Below are positions 32,526 to 44,498 of a DNA stretch of 44,498 bases, one piece after another. How positions within the stretch are numbered: the stretch's first letter is position 1; each line of letters opens with the position of its first letter. The stretch is from contig NZ_JAMQQG010000046.1 of the NCBI RefSeq assembly GCF_023716925.1, forward strand, positions 34,227 to 78,724, in the 5' to 3' direction. The notes below the pieces were generated by a model. It saw only the letters and a program-made list of their open reading frames with translations, was not told the DNA's origin and made no database searches. The translations under genes were made by a program, and so were the position numbers. The DNA is from Frankia sp. R82 (lineage in GTDB: Bacteria > Actinomycetota > Actinomycetes > Frankiales > Frankiaceae).

Positions 32526-34970
32526 TCAGGGCCGTTCTCCGGGTCCGAAAACGGGTCGGTGAACAATCTCCGAGCTCGTGGTCCGCAGGCCGGCCCAGAT
32601 GCGGTCGCGGGCGCGGGTGATGGCGACGTAGAGCTGGCGGCGTTCGAGGCGGAGGCGTTCGCGCAGTGCGTCGTCGGACTCGTCGGCTTTCCGCGGGCGT
32701 GGGAACAGGTCGCGGTCGGGGATCCACACGTGCGCGAAGTCGAGGCTCTTCACCCGCGCGTACGTCCCGACCTTGACGCTCTCCTGGCGGCTGCCGTCAT
32801 ACGCGCGCAGCGCCATGGCCGGGATCTGACGGCGGCGCAGCACCGTCAGCCACCGTTCGACGGCCTGGTCCGTCGGGACGAGCACGGCCATGTCGCCGAA
32901 ACGGGCACCGCGCTCGGTGTGCAGGCGCAGCAGGTCGTCGCACAGTCGCTCGTCCTGCGCGGCGGCGCTGGGCAGCCGCTCCTCGCAGACCTCCCCGCCG
33001 GCACGTTCCACGTCCACGGGCCGCCGGCCCTGCACCTCGACCCCGTCCAGGTCGTCGAAACCGTCGTCGGCGAGGACGGCCTGGGCGTACCGCAGGATGT
33101 TCGCGCCGTTGCGGTAGTTACGGCCGAGGACGGTGGACCGTCCGACGACGGAGACACCGGCCTCGGCCAGCGTGAACCCACCCGGGTAGATCGACTGCTG
33201 CCCGTCACCGACGACGAGCAGCCCGTCCGGCCGGTCTCCGACCAGGGCGTGCAGCAGCTGCAGGCCCACGCAGGTGAGGTCCTGCACCTCGTCCACGATC
33301 ACCGCGTCGTACCGCCCGGTGCCACCGGACGGGCCTGGCACCCCGGCGGCACCGGACGGGCCGGAGGCGCGTACGAGGTCGCGGGCCAGCAGCAGCAAGT
33401 CGTCGAAGTCCAGGACGTCACACTCGATGCGCAGGGTCTCGTAGCGCTCATACAGGTCCCAGACCGCACGCCGGTGCACCGGCTGCAGCGCCGTGCTGCG
33501 CCCGACCCTGGACAGGGTCGCGTACTGCTCGAACCCACGCAGCCCGCGGCCCTTGATGACCTTGGAGATCTCCTCCTGCCAGTAGGACAGCGGCAGCCCC
33601 AGTCCCGACAGCACCGAGTGCCGACCCACCTGGGCCCAGGCACGCCTGAAGCAGAGCCTGACCCTGTCCTTCTCGACGTGGCCGGACAGCCCCCGCGCCT
33701 CCAGGCAACGCCGGGCGAACTGGTGCACCGTGACGAAGTCGACCCGTGCCACGTGCTCCGGCGCCATCCGGGCCAGCAGTGCCCGGTTGACCGGCCCGAG
33801 CGTGCTCACCAGCGAGGTGAACAGCACCCGGTCTCCGCGGGCGGCCAGGTACTTGGCCCGGTGCAGCGCGACGACCGTCTTGCCGGTGCCCGCCGCGCCC
33901 CGCACCCGCGCCGGCCCCGACCAGCGCCGCCCCGCCAACCTCGCCTGGGACGGGTGCAGCCACGTCATCCAGGACTCGACCGGCTCGCGCGCCGCCGCGA
34001 CCAGCAGGTCCTGCCACAGTTCGCCCATCCCCGGCAGCGTCTCCAGCGCCGCCGGCGTCCTCTGGACCGCCGCCGTCATCTGGACCGCCGGAACCGCCGG
34101 AACGGCCGGAACCGGCGGAGTGACCGGCGCCGGGTGCGACGGCGGCGTCGTCCGCGTCGTCGGCGTCGTCGGCGTCCGGGCAGCACCGCGGTCCCTGTTC
34201 GCCCGGGTGTCGCGGGGGGATGCCGTGACGCCGTGCGTCCGCGCGGGTGTCGATCCACCCGGCCGCCGGCCCTCGTCTCGCGGCATCGGCGGGCAGCCCT
34301 GGTCAAGGCATTCCAGCAGGCGTTCCACCGGCTCCGGGCCCAGCCGAACGCCCTGGCGCAACAGATAGCCGGTGAGGTCCTGCTGCCCGAGGACGGCCAC
34401 CCGGTCGAGCTGCTCGTGGAGGCCACGGCGCCCGGCCATCACCAGCAGTGGCACGACCTCGGTCGGGGGCAGCCCCGCCTCGGCGACCACGTCCTCAACA
34501 GCGGTGGTCTGCTCCAGCAGCTTGCGCACACTGTCGTCGGCGTCCGCCTGCCCGCGCCACAGCCGGCCACCCTCGACGCCGAACTCCCGCCAGTTCTTGA
34601 CGTCCACCACGAACACCCCGCCGGGGCCGACGACGATCACGTCGATGTTGGCCTTACGGGTACCCGGCCAGCGCCGATCCGCCAACACCTGCCAACCGAC
34701 GTCGACCATGCCGACCAACACCCGCACCACGCTCTGCTCCCCGCGCCCACCAGCGGCCCAGCGATCCCGGGTGCGCACCAGCTCACGGAGCAGTTCCTCG
34801 AAGTGGCGCACCTGCCGCGCCACCCCGTCGATCTCGAGCTCGAGCTGCGCGACCTGCCCGAACGCCGACGGCTCGACCAGCTCCGCCTGCTCCGCCTGCT
34901 CGGCCAGCCGCACGCGGCCAGGACCGGATGCGACGGGCAGGCGCCTGGAGGCCGGCGGGCCCGAATACAC
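32526..34970 (-). CDS. NERD-domain UvrD/Rep-like helicase
   Basis: An 814-residue protein. A helical N-terminus (residues 30-70) precedes a NERD nuclease-related domain (about 75-200), with GEQSVVRVL and RKANIDVIVVGPGGVFVVDVKNWREF (D110, D123, K125). Then comes a long low-complexity Pro/Thr linker (235-310). The superfamily 1 helicase follows: Walker A GAAGTGKT (358-365), motif II DEVQD (D560-D564), GDGQQSIY (588-595), RNYRNG (617-622) and motif VI YVAITRARDR (781-790). Such proteins act in DNA repair or in defence against foreign DNA. GTG 34970 has GAGGAGG upstream. The 2B-like region is reduced. It is a lone gene apart from the PPOX gene after it. Confidence 0.88.
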   Translation of the reverse strand: MYSGPPASRRLPVASGPGRVRLAEQAEQAELVEPSAFGQVAQLELEIDGVARQVRHFEELLRELVRTRDRWAAGGRGEQSVVRVLVGMVDVGWQVLADRRWPGTRKANIDVIVVGPGGVFVVDVKNWREFGVEGGRLWRGQADADDSVRKLLEQTTAVEDVVAEAGLPPTEVVPLLVMAGRRGLHEQLDRVAVLGQQDLTGYLLRQGVRLGPEPVERLLECLDQGCPPMPRDEGRRPGGSTPARTHGVTASPRDTRANRDRGAARTPTTPTTRTTPPSHPAPVTPPVPAVPAVPAVQMTAAVQRTPAALETLPGMGELWQDLLVAAAREPVESWMTWLHPSQARLAGRRWSGPARVRGAAGTGKTVVALHRAKYLAARGDRVLFTSLVSTLGPVNRALLARMAPEHVARVDFVTVHQFARRCLEARGLSGHVEKDRVRLCFRRAWAQVGRHSVLSGLGLPLSYWQEEISKVIKGRGLRGFEQYATLSRVGRSTALQPVHRRAVWDLYERYETLRIECDVLDFDDLLLLARDLVRASGPSGAAGVPGPSGGTGRYDAVIVDEVQDLTCVGLQLLHALVGDRPDGLLVVGDGQQSIYPGGFTLAEAGVSVVGRSTVLGRNYRNGANILRYAQAVLADDGFDDLDGVEVQGRRPVDVERAGGEVCEERLPSAAAQDERLCDDLLRLHTERGARFGDMAVLVPTDQAVERWLTVLRRRQIPAMALRAYDGSRQESVKVGTYARVKSLDFAHVWIPDRDLFPRPRKADESDDALRERLRLERRQLYVAITRARDRIWAGLRTTSSEIVHRPVFGPGERP

Positions 34971-37256: not shown

Positions 37257-40025
37257 ATGGCGAACCGAACCGCCGGCTCCGTCCGCGGGATGACCCGTGT
37301 GCTGATGGCCGCCGCGGGTGCCGTTCTCCTGGTCGCCCCGCTGGGGATGCCCGCCGTCGCCGAGCCGGTCGGCGGCCCCGCCACGGTGGGCGCCGACGGC
37401 CGGCCACGGGTACACGCCGTGGTGCTCGTCGACGAGTCGAACAGCGAGACTCCCGAGACCGTCCGACAGGAGGCCGAGGCCGCGGGCCTGATCGCCACCA
37501 GCCAGCAGCTCGACACGGGCTCAAAGGTCGCGGTGGTCGGTTTCGGCACCGATGACTTTCCCGAGGTCAGCCGCCAGCAGCACGGCGCGACCGACGAGGT
37601 CTGCCCGCTCGCGCAGGTCGGCAGCACCGACTTCCGGACCTGCCTGGGTCGGCTGCACCTGCGGACCATCGAGGAGGGCAACGGCACCGACCACGCCGCC
37701 GCCCTGACCAAGGCGCTGGACATCCTCGAGACGGCGAAGGACCCGTCCTCCTTCAATGTGGTGTTCCTGCTGACCGACGGCGGTCTGCGGGTGGACAACG
37801 TCCAGCGTTACGGGGCGAGGCTGCCCAACGCCGACGCGACGATGCAGTCGCGGATGACCGCCGCGATGGGAGTGACCGCGGACGACGTCGGGCCGCGGGC
37901 CAGGGCCCTGGGCGCGCAGATCTGGCCGGTCGGCTTCGGCCAGGTGCTCAACCGGGACTGGATGGCCCGCCTGCCCGGCTTCGGCGCCGGCACCAGCCAG
38001 AACTGCCAGAAGGTCCCGGTGGCCGCGCCGGCCCCCCTGTACGCCGAGACCGCCGCGGACATCGCCGAGGCCCTGGACCGGGCGCTGGCGAACGCGAGCT
38101 GCATGGGCTTCGCCACCAGACGCGGCCAGGGCGGGCCCGGTGACCCGGTGACCCTGTCGCTGAACATCCCGTCCACCGCGTCCAGTGCCACCATCAACGC
38201 ACTCAAGCGCGAACCCGGCATCAAGGTCACCTACACGGACCCTCGGGGCCGGGTCGTGCAGGGCTCCGGCCGCCGCGACGGCTCGTTCTTCACCCTGAAC
38301 AACAGCGCCCCCACCTCCGAGTCGCTGTTCATCGCCAGCCCCTACCCGGGTACCTGGAAGGTGACCTTCACCTGGCCCTCGGACGCCCGGCCGCAGACCG
38401 TGCAGGCCGATCTGACCTGGATCGGCCAGCTGAGCTCGGTGGTCCGCCTCTCGCCGGCGTCCCCGAAGCCGGGCGAGTCCGCGACGGTGCACGTCACACT
38501 GCAGACCAGCCGCGGGGAGCCCGCCGACCCCCGTGAGCTCGCCGGACTCGTGTTCGACGCGCAGCTGGCCGGGGACGGCTTCGCCCCCGTGCCGGTGACC
38601 CTGACCGACAACGGTCAGGGCGGCGACGAGAAGGCCGGCGACGGCAGTTACACCGGCCAGGTCAGTGTGCCCAGCGGCGCGACCGGGCTGCTGTCGCTGA
38701 CCGGAAGCATCACCGGTGCGGGTCTGCGGGGCACCGTGCAGCGCGCGACCTACCGGATTCCGGGGCCGCGTGACGGCGGCGCGGTCGTGGAAATGCGTAC
38801 GCCCGACGACGTCCACCGCGGGGCCTCGGTCAGTGGCCTGCTGCGGGCGGACAATCCGTCGGGCACGGCCCGTCAGGTCTCGTTGCGCCCGGCCGGCCTG
38901 GCCGGGGTGTCCCTCGACCCGGTCACGGTGACCGTGCCGGCCGGGGCCAGCGGCTTCGAACAGAAGCTGACGCTGTCCGTCGCGTCGGATGCCGCCTACG
39001 GGCCGCGGCACGGGGTCATCCGGGTGTCCGTCGCCCCCGGAGGCTCGACGACCGGAGGCTCGACGACCGGCGGCTCGGCGGGCAGCGCGGCGAACGAGGG
39101 GGCGGGGGTCGTCCTCACCGAGGAGCCGGTCAGTTTCGACGTGGACGAGCCGCCCGGGTGGCTCGCGCGGAACTGGCCGTACCTGCTCCTGGCCGCCGTC
39201 GTCCTGCTGCTCGCCATCCTCGCCGCCCTGCTGCTGCGGGCCCGGCGGCGCCGCGCCGTCGACGTCTCCCAGCTGCAGGCCTTCGCCACCCGTGGGGACG
39301 GGGCCGGCGCGGACCTGCCGGCCTCCCGGCAGTGGGCGGCCGCGTTTCGGTTCACCCTCAACGACGCGCCCGGGGTCCCGCTCACCCTCACCCAGGCGAA
39401 CCCGGGCGGCGGCGGCGTCTACACCGTCCGCCGGGCCAAGCACGGGCAGCTTGCCGTGCACACCCCGGGCGGTGAGGTTCGGACCCTGCTCCCGGGCACC
39501 CGGTTCCCGGCCGGCATGTCCGGTGCCCAGCTGTGGATCGAGGACCGGCGGCTGCAGGGTCTCGCTCCGAGCACGCCGCCGTCCGACGATCCGTGGAGTG
39601 GCGGCGGCACCGAGGCGAACAGTGCCGACCCGTTCGGTGGTGGCGGCGGCGAGCCCGATCCGTACGCGACCATCGCCGGCCAGGACCCGTTCGCCGGCGC
39701 CGGCGGCAATGCCCGTGTCAACGGCCATGGCGACACCCCGCCGTACAACGCCAGCCAGTACAACGCCAGCCCGTACAGCGCCAGCCCGTACGGCAACGGT
39801 CCGTACGGCGGCGATCCGTACGGCACCCCGGCCGGGTCGGCTCCGCCAGGCGGCGCCGGTCCCGGCACACCTGCCGGGACGGGTGCGCGGGCGGACGACT
39901 ACCGGGCGATGTCCGAGGCACCCACCCTTCAGCCCGGCCAGCCCGGCCAGCGGCCGGCACAGCCACCCGGGCAACCGCCGGCGAACCCGTGGCCGGCCGA
40001 CGACTGGAACAACACGCAGTTCTGA
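37257..40025 (+). CDS. Membrane-anchored extracellular VWA-domain protein
   Basis: A 922-residue protein. It has a signal peptide (residues 1-35, AVA before the cut), then a VWA domain with MIDAS residues D59-S61-S63 (DESNS), a threonine in EGNGTDHAAAL and the aspartate in FLLTDGG. Ig-like or beta-sandwich segments follow (about 300-520), including an acidic calcium-like loop DNGQGGDEKAGDGSYTG. A single membrane helix (about 642-662) is followed by RARRRRA (stop-transfer), and then a cytoplasmic tail. The tail has a beta-rich section (FRFTLNDAPGVPLTLTQ) and a low-complexity end of repeated NAS/SPYG units. The start is ATG 37257 with GGGGGAGG upstream. The exterior binds a ligand by metal; the tail may contact the next gene's product. 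Confidence 0.85.
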   Translation: MANRTAGSVRGMTRVLMAAAGAVLLVAPLGMPAVAEPVGGPATVGADGRPRVHAVVLVDESNSETPETVRQEAEAAGLIATSQQLDTGSKVAVVGFGTDDFPEVSRQQHGATDEVCPLAQVGSTDFRTCLGRLHLRTIEEGNGTDHAAALTKALDILETAKDPSSFNVVFLLTDGGLRVDNVQRYGARLPNADATMQSRMTAAMGVTADDVGPRARALGAQIWPVGFGQVLNRDWMARLPGFGAGTSQNCQKVPVAAPAPLYAETAADIAEALDRALANASCMGFATRRGQGGPGDPVTLSLNIPSTASSATINALKREPGIKVTYTDPRGRVVQGSGRRDGSFFTLNNSAPTSESLFIASPYPGTWKVTFTWPSDARPQTVQADLTWIGQLSSVVRLSPASPKPGESATVHVTLQTSRGEPADPRELAGLVFDAQLAGDGFAPVPVTLTDNGQGGDEKAGDGSYTGQVSVPSGATGLLSLTGSITGAGLRGTVQRATYRIPGPRDGGAVVEMRTPDDVHRGASVSGLLRADNPSGTARQVSLRPAGLAGVSLDPVTVTVPAGASGFEQKLTLSVASDAAYGPRHGVIRVSVAPGGSTTGGSTTGGSAGSAANEGAGVVLTEEPVSFDVDEPPGWLARNWPYLLLAAVVLLLAILAALLLRARRRRAVDVSQLQAFATRGDGAGADLPASRQWAAAFRFTLNDAPGVPLTLTQANPGGGGVYTVRRAKHGQLAVHTPGGEVRTLLPGTRFPAGMSGAQLWIEDRRLQGLAPSTPPSDDPWSGGGTEANSADPFGGGGGEPDPYATIAGQDPFAGAGGNARVNGHGDTPPYNASQYNASPYSASPYGNGPYGGDPYGTPAGSAPPGGAGPGTPAGTGARADDYRAMSEAPTLQPGQPGQRPAQPPGQPPANPWPADDWNNTQF

Positions 40026-40176
40026 GCACCCGCACCCATCCACGACCGACCCACCGAACGCGACCGCACACACCCGGCCCGACCCACGCCACCGGGCAGG
40101 GCCGGGCAGGACCCCGGGCAGGACCGACCGCCGGACACCGGGCACGACCCAGCGCAGAACACGGATCGGGATACGT

Positions 40177-43100
40177 ATGCCGACACGCGACACCGCCTTC
40201 GGGCTGAACATCTACCAGCCACTGGTCTTCGTGGGACTGGGGGGCACCGGCTGCGCGATCGGCACCGAACTCGAGCGGCGGCTGCGCGAGTCGCTGTGCG
40301 GGCCGGACGGTACGGCGTTCGCCGAGCGGATGGGCACCCACGGCAACTCCGGCTATCTGCCCTACCAGCTGCCCGGCTGCCTGCAGTTCGTCTACGCGGA
40401 CCTCAACGAGGCCGAGCTCGACCGCATCCACGGTGCGACCGTCCCCGCGCCGATGCACCACCAGGCGGCGGCCCGCAACGCCCAGCTGGTCCGCGGGCTG
40501 GTGCCGAAGTTCCAGACCTACGCGGAGGTCGCGGCGAACCTGCGGATGACCGCCGGGCAGTTCGTCCAGTCGTGGCTGCCGCCGATCCTGGACGAGCCGC
40601 TGGTCGCGCCGATCACCAAGGGAGCGGGGCAGCTGCCGACGGTGGGCCGGGCGGCGCTGTTCGAGACGGTGCGTGAGGACATCGGCCCGGGCCAGCAGCC
40701 GCTGCGCGACGCGATCGACGCCGTCAGCCGGGCCGGTGCCGAACTCGGCGTGCTCGGCGGGCGGTCGAACCGGTCGTGCGACGTGTTCGTCGCCTTCTCG
40801 GTGGCCGGCGGTACCGGCACCGGCATCTTCTACGACTACCTGCATCTCATCGCGGACGCGTTCGACCGGGCCCGCATCGGCGCGCAGATCTACCCGCTGG
40901 TGCTCATGCCGAGCGCCTTCGACGAGGGCCGCGGCGGGGGCCGCTCGGCGCAGCTCAACGCCGGGCGTGCCCTGCTCGACCTGTTCCGCCTGGTGGACGA
41001 CCAGAACGCCCGCAAGGCCAGGCGGGTGCTGGGCCATTCGGACAACATCGGCCGTCCGATCGACGTCGCCTACCCGGGCCGCAAGATCCAGATCGCGTCG
41101 GGCACGGTACAGACCGGCTTCCTGTTCAGCCGCACCCCGGGGATGGACAAGGACGACATCCACCGTTCGATCTCGTCGCTGGTGCTGTCGCTGATCACCT
41201 CCGAGCAGCAGGCCGAGCAGGCGGCCGTGGTCGGTCAGTCGTTCCAGTCGTTCGCCGACTCGTTCATCAACAGTGCGGCCGAACGGCACACCGCCGCCGA
41301 CTCCGGCATCGGACATCGCGGCGTGTCCACGGCGCTGGTCGCGTCGCTGACCGTGCCCGGGGACGCGCTCGCCGAGCTCGTCGCCGGCCGGCTGCTGGCG
41401 CGGGCCGTTCCCTTGCTGGAGAGCCCGACGCCGGGCGGGGAGCGCAACATCCCGCTGATCGGAAAGATGGCGCGGGCGGCGAACCTCGACGAGATCCTCG
41501 ACCGGCCGGACCTGCCGGTCGGCACGCCGCGGGTCACCGACGGCGCCGCGGAGATCAAACGCTCGCTGACCGACTACTCCGACAACATCGGCGCCGTCCT
41601 GCGGGCCCAGGCCACGCAGCTCACCGGGCAGGCCCAGGAGATCGCCGGGCAGCGGTTCCAGCCGGTGCAGGCCGCCCGGACGATGCTCGACGAGGTGGAC
41701 GTCCTCCATCTGCGCCGGATCATCCGCGGGCATCCGGAGCTGCTCGACCCGCCGGACCGCAGCGGCCTGCTCGGCCTGCTCGACGCGCGTAAGAACACCC
41801 CACCGCAGGTACCGAACCGGCCGCAGGTCAGCGCCGCGGCCCCCGTACTGCCCGACATCCGCAACCGGTTCCCCGGCAAGGCGAAGTGGGGTGACCCGCC
41901 GGTGCAGCAGGCCATCGCCACCCTGCAGCACTGGCACCGGTGGAACACCTGGCGGCTGTGGCACGAGGCGTGGGGCCGCCAGACCCGGGTCTGGCAGCAG
42001 AAGATGAACGTCGCCGTCGGCCATGTGGACGACTTCGCCGACGCCCTCACCGTGTTCGCCCGCGCGGAACCGGACGAGTTCGACCGCCGCACGATCGCAC
42101 TCAGCCAGGACCGGACCGGCATCCGTCAACTGCTGCCCGCCGGCGGCAACCTCGAGGTGTTCTACCGCACGGTGCTGCGGGCGTTCCTGCAGCGTGGCGG
42201 GCTGCCCGAGGGTGCCACCGAGGCGGACGTGCTGCGGCTGCTGCTGCACGGCTCCGACTGGCAGCGGGCCTTCGAGGAGATCACCGAACGGGCCGCGCCG
42301 CAGCGGGCGGTGGCCATCCTGCGCGACCGGCTCAAGCAGGAGGTCCGGTCGCTGTTCGCCGAGGCGGAGGGCGGTGGGGTGCCGTTGCTGCCGTCGATGG
42401 GCCGACTGCTGGCCCGGGCCGCCAGCAGCGCCGCACCCGACGTCGACCCGCTGGACCTGCGCCAGTTCCTCGACCAGCTGCGCGCGTTGCTGCCCGGCGG
42501 GTTCAGCCCCGACGGCTCCGGCCGCCTGAAGATCCTGATCGCGCACCCGGCGGTCAAGCACGCCGGCGCCGGCGAGGTCGAGGCCTGTCTGCGCGACGAA
42601 CTGGCGTTGCCCACCGGGCAGGGCGTGACCCCCGACTTCCGGCCCGGACAGCCTGACTCGATCGTCGTGGTGCTCTTTCGCAGTTCGATGGCCGTCAACG
42701 AGGTGCGGGAGGTCCGGGAGCTGCTGCGGTTCTGGTCGCAGGCGGTCACCCACAACGACCCGGCCGACTATCTGCGCTGGCGGCAGCGGCTGAGCTACAA
42801 CTACGGCTGGCTCGCGATGACCGAGGACAACCGCACCACGATCCTGCACCGGTTGCTGTGCGCGATGTGGAACGGACGGGTGCGGGTCACCGGGTCGCTG
42901 GAGTCGCCGGAGTCGATCCAGGTCAGCGCGGTCGAGTACGACGAGGCGCAGTCGATGTACCTGCCGCTGCACCGGATCGGGCAGACCTCGTCGTGGGGGT
43001 CGCTGCTGCGGGTCTACGAGCAGGCGATCGTCGAGGATGACGACGAGGCGCGCCGGGCGTTCACCCGCAGCCTGCGGATGATCCGCCCGGACGGACTCAC

Positions 43101-43356
43101 CCACGAACCGGTACCGCCCGCGGCGGTGTTCCGGATCTTCGTCGACCTGGCCGGGTCGGAGGTCGCCCGGATCGAGAAGTTCCGCACCGGACTGCCACCG
43201 GCCAGCCGCAGCCGGCTCGACCAGACCCTCGAGTTCTGGTCGACCACCGTGCCCGCCGCGCTGGACCGACCGTTCACCGAGGAGGGCGCGATCCGCGGGA
43301 ACCTGCGTGACCTCTACGAGTACACGGCCGAGGTCGAGTGGGCGGACGAGCGATGA
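40177..43356 (+). CDS. Tubulin-like (Tubulin_2-type) GTPase
   Basis: A 1,059-residue cytosolic protein. The N-terminus PLVFVGLGGTGCAIGTELERRL (residues 15-36) is the first nucleotide-binding loop. Residues 209-216, VAGGTGTG, are the tubulin/FtsZ signature (GGTGTG), followed by FYDYLHLIADAF. The C-terminal two thirds are helical with no recognised domain (KRSLTDYSDNIGAVLRAQ, YNYGWLAMTEDN and so on). It is much larger than FtsZ, as expected for the Tubulin_2 family of bacterial tubulin-like proteins, often encoded beside VWA genes. The start is ATG 40177, 151 bases after the VWA gene, so the two may be co-transcribed. Its stop overlaps the next ATG (ATGA), showing tight coupling. Confidence 0.85.
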   Translation: MPTRDTAFGLNIYQPLVFVGLGGTGCAIGTELERRLRESLCGPDGTAFAERMGTHGNSGYLPYQLPGCLQFVYADLNEAELDRIHGATVPAPMHHQAAARNAQLVRGLVPKFQTYAEVAANLRMTAGQFVQSWLPPILDEPLVAPITKGAGQLPTVGRAALFETVREDIGPGQQPLRDAIDAVSRAGAELGVLGGRSNRSCDVFVAFSVAGGTGTGIFYDYLHLIADAFDRARIGAQIYPLVLMPSAFDEGRGGGRSAQLNAGRALLDLFRLVDDQNARKARRVLGHSDNIGRPIDVAYPGRKIQIASGTVQTGFLFSRTPGMDKDDIHRSISSLVLSLITSEQQAEQAAVVGQSFQSFADSFINSAAERHTAADSGIGHRGVSTALVASLTVPGDALAELVAGRLLARAVPLLESPTPGGERNIPLIGKMARAANLDEILDRPDLPVGTPRVTDGAAEIKRSLTDYSDNIGAVLRAQATQLTGQAQEIAGQRFQPVQAARTMLDEVDVLHLRRIIRGHPELLDPPDRSGLLGLLDARKNTPPQVPNRPQVSAAAPVLPDIRNRFPGKAKWGDPPVQQAIATLQHWHRWNTWRLWHEAWGRQTRVWQQKMNVAVGHVDDFADALTVFARAEPDEFDRRTIALSQDRTGIRQLLPAGGNLEVFYRTVLRAFLQRGGLPEGATEADVLRLLLHGSDWQRAFEEITERAAPQRAVAILRDRLKQEVRSLFAEAEGGGVPLLPSMGRLLARAASSAAPDVDPLDLRQFLDQLRALLPGGFSPDGSGRLKILIAHPAVKHAGAGEVEACLRDELALPTGQGVTPDFRPGQPDSIVVVLFRSSMAVNEVREVRELLRFWSQAVTHNDPADYLRWRQRLSYNYGWLAMTEDNRTTILHRLLCAMWNGRVRVTGSLESPESIQVSAVEYDEAQSMYLPLHRIGQTSSWGSLLRVYEQAIVEDDDEARRAFTRSLRMIRPDGLTHEPVPPAAVFRIFVDLAGSEVARIEKFRTGLPPASRSRLDQTLEFWSTTVPAALDRPFTEEGAIRGNLRDLYEYTAEVEWADER

Positions 43357-44498
43357 CGCCCGCCATGATGCCTCCCGTAGCCGGCGCCGGCTACGGCGGG
43401 CGCGAGGATGACGACGCGGCGCTGGTGGTCGTCATCGACCTGCGGGACGACCCGCGCCGGGTGCTGTCCACCCCGATCGGCACCCTGCAGCGGGAGTACG
43501 CCAGCCAGTCGGGCCGACGTGACGTGGACACCAGCCGGATCCTGGTCGTCACCGAGGTGGACTGCCTCGAGGAGTACCGGGAGCTGCTCGTGCGGGTGTC
43601 CGCCTCGGCGTCGCAGCTGTTGGTGCTGGGACTGGGCCCGCGCCCGAACCCCGAGCGGCTCTACCTGCCGGCCGTCCCCGAACTGCCCGTGTTGTGGGCT
43701 GGCGACCTGCGCGGAGTGCGGTGGAGTCCCGGCCGGGCCGGGCGGGTGCTCGGCCCCGACGAGGACGCCCAGCCGAACCTCGCGGCGCTGTTGCAGGCGT
43801 TGGGCATTCCCAGTGTCTTCAGCCGGGTGCGCGACGAGGTGCTGCGCTGCGCCCACCAGGTCGCCGCGCCGGCGATCCATCTGCTGCTCGGCCGGGTGAG
43901 CCGGGACGTCCTCGACCAGGCCGCCGGGCATGCCTTCGGCCATTTCACCCTGGAGGACAACGGCATCCCGCCCGGCCCCGGCGGCACCGGTCTGCCTGGC
44001 ACCGGTCTGCCCGGCGGCGGCCTGCCCGGCGGCCTGCCCGGCGCCCCGGATGCGGCCCACGGTGGTGGGGCGAGGCCGGTGGTGCCGGAGGAGGCCGTCC
44101 GGATCGACCGGCTCCTGACCGGCTCGGCCACCACCGATGTCGCCGGCATCGGCTCGATCATCAACCCGAACGGCCAGCTGCCGGCGGCCGCCCTCGCCGC
44201 CCGCCGGCACCTTGACGAGGCCACCGCGCTGGTCGCCGCCCTGCGCGAGGAGCCGTTCGCCGCCCGCCGCTCGGTGGCCGGTGAGGGGCTCGTACCCGTC
44301 GGGTCGCTGGTCTGGACGGAACTCACCCAGGCCGGCGCCCACCTGGGGACCCTTGCCGAGGGCCTGCACACGGCGCTGCGCGAGCTGGGCGGCCACGACG
44401 GCGTCGGCCCGCAGCAGCGACACACCCTGGCGCTGCTCGGTGTGCAGATGGTGCCCGTCCCGGCGGCGGCGGCCGCGGAGGTGCGCACGGCGCTGGCC
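43353..44498 (+). CDS. Third gene of the VWA-tubulin cassette (partial, runs off window)
   Basis: Open to the window end for 382 codons, so the C-terminus is unseen. ATG 43353 overlaps the tubulin-like stop as ATGA. Residues about 20-160 look like an alpha/beta domain: AALVVVIDLRDDPRRVL, ILVVTEVDCLEEYRELLVRVSASASQLLVLGLGP. A conserved-looking stretch FGHFTLEDN is followed by a Gly/Leu/Pro repeat (GLPGTGLPGGGLPGG, about residues 214-228). After that come more helical segments (AALAARRHLDEATALVAALREEPF, GSLVWTELTQAGAHLGTLAEGLH). I do not recognise a family. The strict coupling indicates it works with the tubulin-like protein. Confidence 0.75.
   Translation, partial: MTPAMMPPVAGAGYGGREDDDAALVVVIDLRDDPRRVLSTPIGTLQREYASQSGRRDVDTSRILVVTEVDCLEEYRELLVRVSASASQLLVLGLGPRPNPERLYLPAVPELPVLWAGDLRGVRWSPGRAGRVLGPDEDAQPNLAALLQALGIPSVFSRVRDEVLRCAHQVAAPAIHLLLGRVSRDVLDQAAGHAFGHFTLEDNGIPPGPGGTGLPGTGLPGGGLPGGLPGAPDAAHGGGARPVVPEEAVRIDRLLTGSATTDVAGIGSIINPNGQLPAAALAARRHLDEATALVAALREEPFAARRSVAGEGLVPVGSLVWTELTQAGAHLGTLAEGLHTALRELGGHDGVGPQQRHTLALLGVQMVPVPAAAAAEVRTALA

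What the first reader, a model, noticed from the sequence alone, without database searches (positions are those of the whole stretch)
37257..44498. VWA-tubulin-unknown cassette: a possible membrane-linked tubulin machine
An extracellular VWA protein with one membrane helix and a cytoplasmic tail is followed by a 1,059-residue tubulin-like GTPase and, through an ATGA overlap, by a third unrecognised protein. The order suggests an outside ligand controlling a cytoplasmic filament or GTP switch. The cassette continues past the window, so more parts are likely. Its function appears undescribed.
Basis: partly seen in the sequence, partly recalled or inferred. Interest (0 to 1): 0.75.

Follow-up and report, generated by a model that had tools for sequence, protein, structure and literature searches.

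The report
Membrane-linked tubulin GTPase operon, probably defence
A Frankia-type soil bacterium carries a gene cluster that joins an outward-facing sensor protein to an unusual bacterial tubulin; the cluster is of a known but untested kind, probably an anti-virus alarm, and its unrecognised third protein may be a second, membrane-held tubulin.

Summary
Window 37257-44498 holds a signal/VWA/one-helix protein, a 1,059-aa Tubulin_2 protein (PF13809, E 5e-59) and, by an ATGA overlap, a third protein cut by the contig end. In 80 related loci the order VWA-tubulin-gene 3 is kept wherever the contig allows (77 of 80 on each side; misses are contig ends). The rest of the operon is on another contig of the same genome: end of gene 3, pseudokinase, zinc-ribbon double-GTPase, GAP1-like, FtsW-like and a second GTPase gene. 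The kind is in print: Makarova & Koonin 2010 (FtsZl1-vWA operons) and Kaur et al. 2020 (DO-GTPase/GAP1-N2 tubulin "conflict systems"). Relatives carry PycTM (25 of 80 loci), SLATT or TIR-MoxR genes, which favours defence. New here: a predicted tubulin fold whose C-terminal domain is split by a ~360-aa helical insertion; a structural hint (not supported by sequence profiles) that protein 3 is a degenerate, membrane-embedded tubulin paralogue, with a degenerate tubulin found at that position in a distant relative; and an FtsW-like gene, without FtsW's key Asp, in five Frankiaceae operons. Function is untested. New variant of a known kind.

The parts
37257..40025 (+). VWA protein, 922 aa: N-terminal hydrophobic signal, vWA domain, ectodomain, one transmembrane helix, cytoplasmic Pro-rich tail
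37419..37781 (+). vWA domain (residues 55-175)
   Evidence: Pfam VWA_2 E 8.5e-6, 26.8 bits against cut-off 27
39180..39236 (+). transmembrane helix of the VWA protein (residues 642-660); cytoplasmic tail follows to 40022
   Evidence: hydropathy script
40177..43356 (+). Tubulin_2 / FtsZl1 GTPase, 1,059 aa
   Evidence: PF13809 E 5e-59; AlphaFold2 pLDDT 86.5; structural matches to the tubulin superfamily
40213..41421 (+). tubulin GTPase domain plus first strand-helix unit of the C-terminal domain (residues 13-415; boundaries read from DSSP, inferred)
41434..42516 (+). helical insertion of about 360 residues (residues 420-780; boundaries inferred)
   Evidence: DSSP of the model; aligned ranges run across it
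42523..43056 (+). rest of the tubulin C-terminal domain (residues 783-960; boundaries inferred)
43353..43356 (+). ATGA stop/start overlap of tubulin gene and gene 3
43353..44498 (+). gene 3 (family C3), first 382 residues, cut by the contig end; its end lies on contig G000:C75 (locus L119); candidate degenerate membrane tubulin paralogue

Best explanation
The three genes are the front half of a membrane-bound, nucleotide-switched alarm system of the DO-GTPase/GAP1 tubulin type, probably antiviral or another conflict system. Shown by sequence: a conserved operon VWA - tubulin - gene 3 - pseudokinase - zinc-ribbon GTPase - GAP1-like protein, with lineage-specific effector-type genes beside it. 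Inferred: the VWA ectodomain senses something in the wall or outside; its tail controls GTP-dependent assembly of the tubulin, perhaps with gene 3 as a membrane-held partner; the assembly state is read by the pseudokinase and the DO-GTPase/GAP1 pair, which release a membrane-acting (PycTM, SLATT) or TIR effector. In five Frankiaceae genomes the attached part is an FtsW-like protein that looks catalytically dead.
For: Synteny 77 of 80 on each side. Kinase-like 69, GTPase 68 and GAP1-like 64 of 80 loci; all kinase-like and GTPase misses, and 12 of 16 GAP1-like misses, have at most two genes called after the tubulin. Own genome continues the operon on contig C75 with DO-GTPase2 E 4.2e-11, over its cut-off. 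GAP1-like and GTPase parts are fused in one protein in 4 loci and SLATT is fused in 3 of 31 GAP1-like members, both traits that Kaur et al. give for GAP1. PycTM immediately upstream of VWA in 25 of 80 loci, 25 of 25 scanned matching PF18967. TIR and bpMoxR-type AAA genes follow in a 5-locus family, one locus scanned. SLATT gene beside a Pseudofrankia copy. Patchy: 12 of 35 genomes of the window's family and 6 of 246 of the phylum, own included.
Against: No experiment. No PADLOC model matches the three window proteins (the other core proteins were not scanned there). No GAP1 Pfam model hit in 31 GAP1-like members. PycTM, TIR and SLATT occur beside some copies only and could be independent genes. 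PADLOC hits among 77 of 141 flanking-gene representatives have no background control. Copies are not all at different sites: G030/G032/G033, G016/G019 and own/G012 share flanking genes, so there is little support for a freely moving island. No recognised toxic effector in the window's own operon as far as its contigs reach.
Confidence: 0.55

Rival explanations
1. A membrane-remodelling or vesicle machine driven by the tubulin-like GTPase (the 2010 proposal).
For: Published context analysis. VWA protein and gene 3 are membrane proteins (at least two hydropathy helices in 67 of 72 gene 3 proteins); a helix-like stretch ends 41 of 71 GAP1-like hits (profile later cleaned).
Against: Rare and patchy; neighbours PycTM, SLATT and TIR are not expected of a basic membrane machine.
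Confidence: 0.2
2. A cell-wall or septation module of filamentous actinobacteria, built from a tubulin, an FtsW-like protein and a kinase-like protein.
For: FtsW-like gene in the operon of the own genome: TIGR02614 E 1e-8, PF01098 E 3.3e-6, 26.8 bits against 26.4; FtsW chains are the two best PDB hits, E about 0.01.
Against: Seen in 5 of the 12 Frankiaceae genomes with the tubulin (two others are cut too early to tell); its profile hits no gene in the loci of other genera. Where FtsW has its Asp the five sequences have R, R, R, H, T (that this Asp is catalytic is recalled; one sequence has an Asp one place away). 23 of 35 genomes of the family show no tubulin match.
Confidence: 0.15
3. A cluster without a selected common function.
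For: Patchy distribution.
Against: Order, 4-base overlaps and GTP motifs are kept across many genera at about 40-47% identity.
Confidence: 0.05

Closest known systems
FtsZl1 (Pfam Tubulin_2) / vWA operons, Makarova & Koonin 2010, PMC2875224
   Same: Same tubulin family, vWA partner, GTPase and kinase-type partners, membrane-associated unknown neighbours.
   Different: They could not identify T6-H7 or a known C-terminal domain; the model here places the C-terminal domain on both sides of a long insertion. Some neighbours left unnamed there get a tentative identity here.
Actinobacterial tubulin theme of GAP1-N2 / DO-GTPase systems, Kaur et al. 2020, PMC7159879
   Same: Zinc-ribbon DO-GTPase; tubulin with a helical extension; membrane vWA protein; GAP1-like protein next to, or fused with, the GTPase; SLATT fused to some GAP1-like proteins.
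   Different: Their text gives a single tubulin gene in actinobacterial systems, and the word FtsW or RodA does not occur in the main text; here gene 3 is a candidate second tubulin, a pseudokinase is core, and some operons hold an FtsW-like gene. Their HRDC-FNIII protein was not recognised here.
CetZ, TubZ, FtsZ and tubulin
   Same: Fold of the window protein (CetZ Z 21.8, 303 residues); T1 and T4 motifs.
   Different: About 360-residue helical insertion inside the C-terminal domain; T7 region not clearly identifiable; 1,059 residues.
Pycsar (PycTM effector)
   Same: PycTM encoded immediately upstream of VWA in 25 of 80 loci, all titled Streptomyces.
   Different: Not found in the Frankiaceae operon; the cyclase-like gene near one Streptomyces copy had no Pfam match.

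Membership tests
FtsZl1 / Tubulin_2 (PF13809) | Match to the family model over its cut-off | tested here: met
   E 5e-59, 200.8 bits against 27
FtsZl1 / Tubulin_2 (PF13809) | vWA gene in the operon | tested here: met
   77 of 80 loci, misses at contig ends
Tubulin/FtsZ superfamily | Tubulin fold in both domains | tested here: met
   AlphaFold2 pLDDT 86.5; CetZ Z 21.8 with 303 of 342 residues, M. tuberculosis FtsZ Z 19.6 with 271 of 305; the 50 best Foldseek rows are tubulin-superfamily proteins or chains of microtubule and gamma-tubulin complexes, best E only 1.8e-3
Tubulin/FtsZ superfamily | T1 and T4 nucleotide loops | tested here: met
   GLGG and AGGTGxG invariant in 40 of 40
Tubulin/FtsZ superfamily | T7 catalytic acidic loop | tested here: inconclusive
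   candidate SFAD at 358-361; D361 in 33 of 40; equivalence not established
Tubulin/FtsZ superfamily | GTP-dependent filaments | not testable with these tools
   needs biochemistry
DO-GTPase/GAP1-N2 tubulin system | DO-GTPase with zinc ribbon | tested here: met
   own genome L119:7464-8567(-) PF19993 E 4.2e-11; in relatives P-loop 69 of 69, CPxC 63 of 69, [TN]KxD 46 of 69
DO-GTPase/GAP1-N2 tubulin system | GAP1 next to or fused with the DO-GTPase | tested here: inconclusive
   right position in 64 of 80 loci and fused in 4, SLATT in 3 of 31, but no GAP1 model hit in 31 members
DO-GTPase/GAP1-N2 tubulin system | Membrane vWA protein with FNIII repeats | tested here: inconclusive
   vWA and helix present; no FNIII model hit at E 0.1
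DO-GTPase/GAP1-N2 tubulin system | HRDC-FNIII protein | not tested
   not searched for by name; none recognised among the genes scanned
Gene 3 as tubulin paralogue | Tubulin-like fold | tested here: inconclusive
   VIA rows 1-10 all tubulin superfamily, Z 7.4-8.7, 200-235 residues, but the next, unrelated rows score 7.3 and the tool's background is 7-8; in Foldseek CetZ1 is only rank 26, E 0.73
Gene 3 as tubulin paralogue | Sequence-profile similarity to the tubulin | tested here: not met
   hhalign probability 0.2, 0.4 and 0.1, 0.2
SEDS / FtsW | FtsW/RodA model match | tested here: met
   PF01098 26.8 bits against 26.4; TIGR02614 E 1e-8 but far below its equivalog cut-off
SEDS / FtsW | Catalytic Asp (role recalled) | tested here: not met
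   R, R, R, H, T at that position in five sequences
Active Ser/Thr kinase | HRD and DFG motifs | tested here: not met
   HRD in 6 and DFG in 1 of 48 stand-alone proteins

The most novel reading that the evidence does not exclude
The tubulin and gene 3 form an unequal pair of tubulins, one soluble and GTP-binding, one degenerate and embedded in the membrane; with the pseudokinase and the dead-looking FtsW-like protein they make an inactive copy of the division machinery: a decoy divisome that detects viral attack on cell division or the wall and then fires PycTM, SLATT or TIR effectors.
Probability: 0.12. Interest if true: 0.9.

Novelty: new variant of a known kind. Interest (0 to 1): 0.56.

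Why it matters
Bacterial tubulins other than FtsZ and TubZ are little tested. If the reading holds, a whole tubulin family works as a membrane-bound immune switch rather than in division. The model suggests where the missing half of FtsZl1 lies, a question left open in the 2010 paper, and names a concrete partner, gene 3, to co-express. The FtsW-like gene in Frankiaceae operons gives a testable link between wall or division surveillance and defence.

Tried and rejected
Sequence link between gene 3 and the tubulin: none. PDB sequence search with the tubulin profile: six hits, best E 0.76, gamma-tubulin at 1.2; with the gene 3 profile: 13 hits, best E 0.018 to a designed coiled coil. Viral fold library with gene 3: nothing useful. 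GAP1 and FNIII: no model hits. Second half of the FtsW-like protein as a penicillin-binding protein: PBP2/PenA chains appear only at E 0.4-0.5, beside polyketide-synthase chains with better E, so no claim. Kinase-like proteins: best NCBIfam hit is the MADS kinase MAD6, E 7.7e-8 and 5.1e-7, but about 30 bits against a cut-off of 460. In two other Frankiaceae genomes (G016, G019) a different multi-helix gene stands near the FtsW position; one was scanned, PF01098 E 0.75, not significant. tRNA scan of the window: none. Promoter, phage-record and plasmid searches were not run.

My first idea that every Frankiaceae copy sits at another site was wrong: shared flanks are listed. My first GAP1-like profile held four wrong or fused seeds; cleaned, its count fell from 66 to 64 of 80.

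Gene calls are from my own script, not an annotation. The 80 loci are the best of 173, not dereplicated, with many Streptomyces, and several are the same records as loci L013-L023. One search listed 74 of 80 tubulins of 1000-1300 aa; one search aligned 39 of them with the window. One search aligned 35 of 71 gene 3 proteins. One search used 30 of the 42 first GAP1-like seeds plus the own protein. One search took 77 of 141 flanking representatives. The PycTM count is of 25 small clean members of a cluster found in 28 loci.
Full report
WHAT IS THERE. The window ends exactly at the end of contig G000:C22. Its last three genes are a VWA protein (37257-40025), a Tubulin_2 protein (40177-43356, PF13809 E 5e-59) and gene 3 (43353 onward), which starts in an ATGA overlap. 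The VWA protein has an N-terminal hydrophobic stretch and one internal helix at residues 642-660, leaving a 262-residue tail. The nearest named relative of the tubulin, 97% identical, is in Candidatus Frankia nodulisporulans, so the host is taken to be a Frankia-type bacterium.

THE REST OF THE OPERON. Searching the window's own genome with the downstream DNA of Frankia sp. AiPa1 (L068, tubulin 91% identical) found contig C75. On its minus strand (L119) lie in order: the end of gene 3, a kinase-like gene (9751-8564), a zinc-ribbon GTPase gene (8567-7464), a GAP1-like gene (7456-6014), an FtsW-like gene (6068-2796, start uncertain), a second GTPase gene and a further gene cut by the contig end. 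The window and C75 share no end overlap by string search, so contiguity is inferred from order and homology; roughly 230 residues of gene 3 are missing between them.

SYNTENY. Of 173 tubulin relatives in genome contigs the best 80 were kept; all are titled with actinobacterial names. VWA lies within three genes upstream in 77 of 80 (immediately in 71) and gene 3 immediately downstream in 77 of 80; the six misses are contig ends. Kinase-like, GTPase and GAP1-like genes follow in 69, 68 and 64 of 80; all kinase-like and GTPase misses and 12 of the 16 GAP1-like misses have at most two genes called after the tubulin; the other four (L037, L039, L060, L077) are true misses at this threshold. Kinase-like and GTPase parts are in one protein in 20 loci, GAP1-like and GTPase parts in 4. 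The tubulin is found in 12 of 35 genomes of the window's family and in 6 of 246 genomes drawn across the phylum, own included; one of the six is weak (31.8 bits, cut-off 27). The Frankiaceae copies lie at several sites, but siblings share sites: G030, G032 and G033; G016 and G019; own and G012.

THE TUBULIN. AlphaFold2 with 40 sequences gave pLDDT 86.5. Foldseek's 50 best PDB rows are tubulin-superfamily proteins or chains of microtubule and gamma-tubulin complexes; the best E is only 1.8e-3. VIA-align gives CetZ Z 21.8 over 303 of 342 residues and M. tuberculosis FtsZ Z 19.6 over 271 of 305, with model ranges 13-863 and 13-838. Since these ranges run across a helical block at about 420-780, I infer that the C-terminal domain is split: first strand and helix (383-415) before the block, the rest (from 783) after it. 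The output gives no residue-level alignment; boundaries are my reading of the DSSP string. T1 and T4 are invariant. The T7 loop is unclear: SFAD at 358-361 is a candidate, with D361 in 33 of 40.

GENE 3. No Pfam or NCBIfam match, and no significant PDB sequence match. At least two hydropathy helices in 67 of 72 members. The model of the Rhizohabitans protein (L041, pLDDT 90.0) has an N-terminal alpha/beta domain, a long helical part and a small C-terminal part with strands. In VIA-align the ten best rows are tubulin, CetZ, FtsZ or a gamma-tubulin complex chain (Z 7.4-8.7, 200-235 residues, between residues 4 and 731), again around a helical insertion; the next, unrelated rows score 7.3 and the stated background is 7-8. 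In Foldseek CetZ1 is rank 26 with E 0.73. Profile comparison does not link gene 3 to the tubulin. So this is a hint only.

A HELPFUL DISTANT RELATIVE. In G193 (locus L135) the gene after the tubulin is a 776-aa protein with two hydropathy helices. Its family of six (6 of 36 genomes) keeps a GLGxxG loop in 6 of 6 but, by eye, not the T4 box. Its N-terminal profile matches that of the adjacent tubulins at hhalign E 2.6e-5, probability 74.7, against E 0.25-0.75 for four other families; full length it is E 2.1e-4, probability 45.7. Limits: these are single comparisons, the confident segment is 37 columns, the 277-column alignment over T1, T4 and later strands came from a relaxed setting, the alignments are shallow, and there is no match to the window's own tubulin family (E 0.063) or to gene 3. 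I read it as a degenerate tubulin paralogue at gene 3's position; that it is the same gene as gene 3 is inference. Kaur et al. state that Firmicutes systems have two tubulin genes.

KINASE, GTPASE, EFFECTORS. The kinase-like protein lacks HRD in 42 and DFG in 47 of 48 stand-alone members, so it is a predicted pseudokinase. The GTPase keeps its P-loop in 69 of 69. PycTM is directly upstream of VWA in 25 of 80 loci, 25 of 25 scanned at E 0.001. A TIR gene and a MoxR-type AAA gene follow in a five-locus family of Lentzea, Amycolatopsis and Actinocrispum; one locus was scanned. SLATT domains are fused in 3 of 31 GAP1-like proteins and stand beside a Pseudofrankia copy. In five Frankiaceae genomes (own, G002, G007, G008, G030; G012 and G029 are cut too early to tell) an FtsW-like gene follows the GAP1-like gene. 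It passes PF01098 narrowly, hits FtsW in PDB at E 0.0095, and has R, R, R, H or T where FtsW has Asp.

WHAT IT WORKS LIKE AND WHAT IT IS. Membership is clear for FtsZl1/Tubulin_2 and good, though incomplete, for the DO-GTPase tubulin systems of Kaur et al. From PMC2875224 I read parts 1-3 of 5 of the text; from PMC7159879 passages and section 29; from PMC9871819 passages; all other papers only as search listings. Searches with FtsZl1, Tubulin_2, DO-GTPase, GAP1-N2, tubulin-like with vWA or anti-phage, and Frankia with FtsZ-like or FtsW showed, by title, no experimental study of these operons; some searches listed only 20 of 237, 40 of 257 and 15 of 69 papers, and the library lacks preprints and most subscription journals. 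One search for decoy or guard with phage and division (10 of 28 listed) showed nothing on a decoy divisome by title. The effector-type neighbours and patchy distribution favour the conflict reading over membrane remodelling; the FtsW-like gene keeps a wall or division role open.

VERDICT. Real, conserved, known in kind, untested in function. The added value is the split tubulin fold, the candidate membrane tubulin paralogue, the pseudokinase, the FtsW-like add-on and the count of effector neighbours.

Noticed in passing
window 32526-34970 (-): NERD plus UvrD-type helicase protein (Pfam NERD E 2.2e-13, UvrD-helicase E 2.9e-15; PADLOC C3a187 'NERD+UvrD' E 7.5e-26), a candidate defence gene about 2.3 kb upstream of the cassette.
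   Followed up: no
L126, L127, L128, L129, L130, L131, L139 (other loci of the genus): A separate pair without tubulin beside it: a gene 3 homologue (169-636 aa; no hydropathy helix in the six tested) followed by a 1,040-1,390-aa protein that hits the GAP1-like profile in 5 of 7 loci; further genes follow, one with a PP2C domain in L131. G002 and G007 have both this pair and the tubulin operon.
   Followed up: partly
L025, L026, L028 (G008, G007, G030): A membrane-protein gene of one family on the opposite strand directly after the operon; DUF4407 in the one scanned (L026, PF14362 E 8.1e-67).
   Followed up: no
L138 (G164): Two neighbouring short tubulin-like genes of 498 and 573 aa, both with a GTGSG box, in a distant actinobacterium.
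   Followed up: no
L075 and L058, upstream of VWA: A Crp-type regulator, a cyclase-like gene and a long gene of one family recur near Streptomyces and a few other copies (clusters C7, C5, C6).
   Followed up: partly
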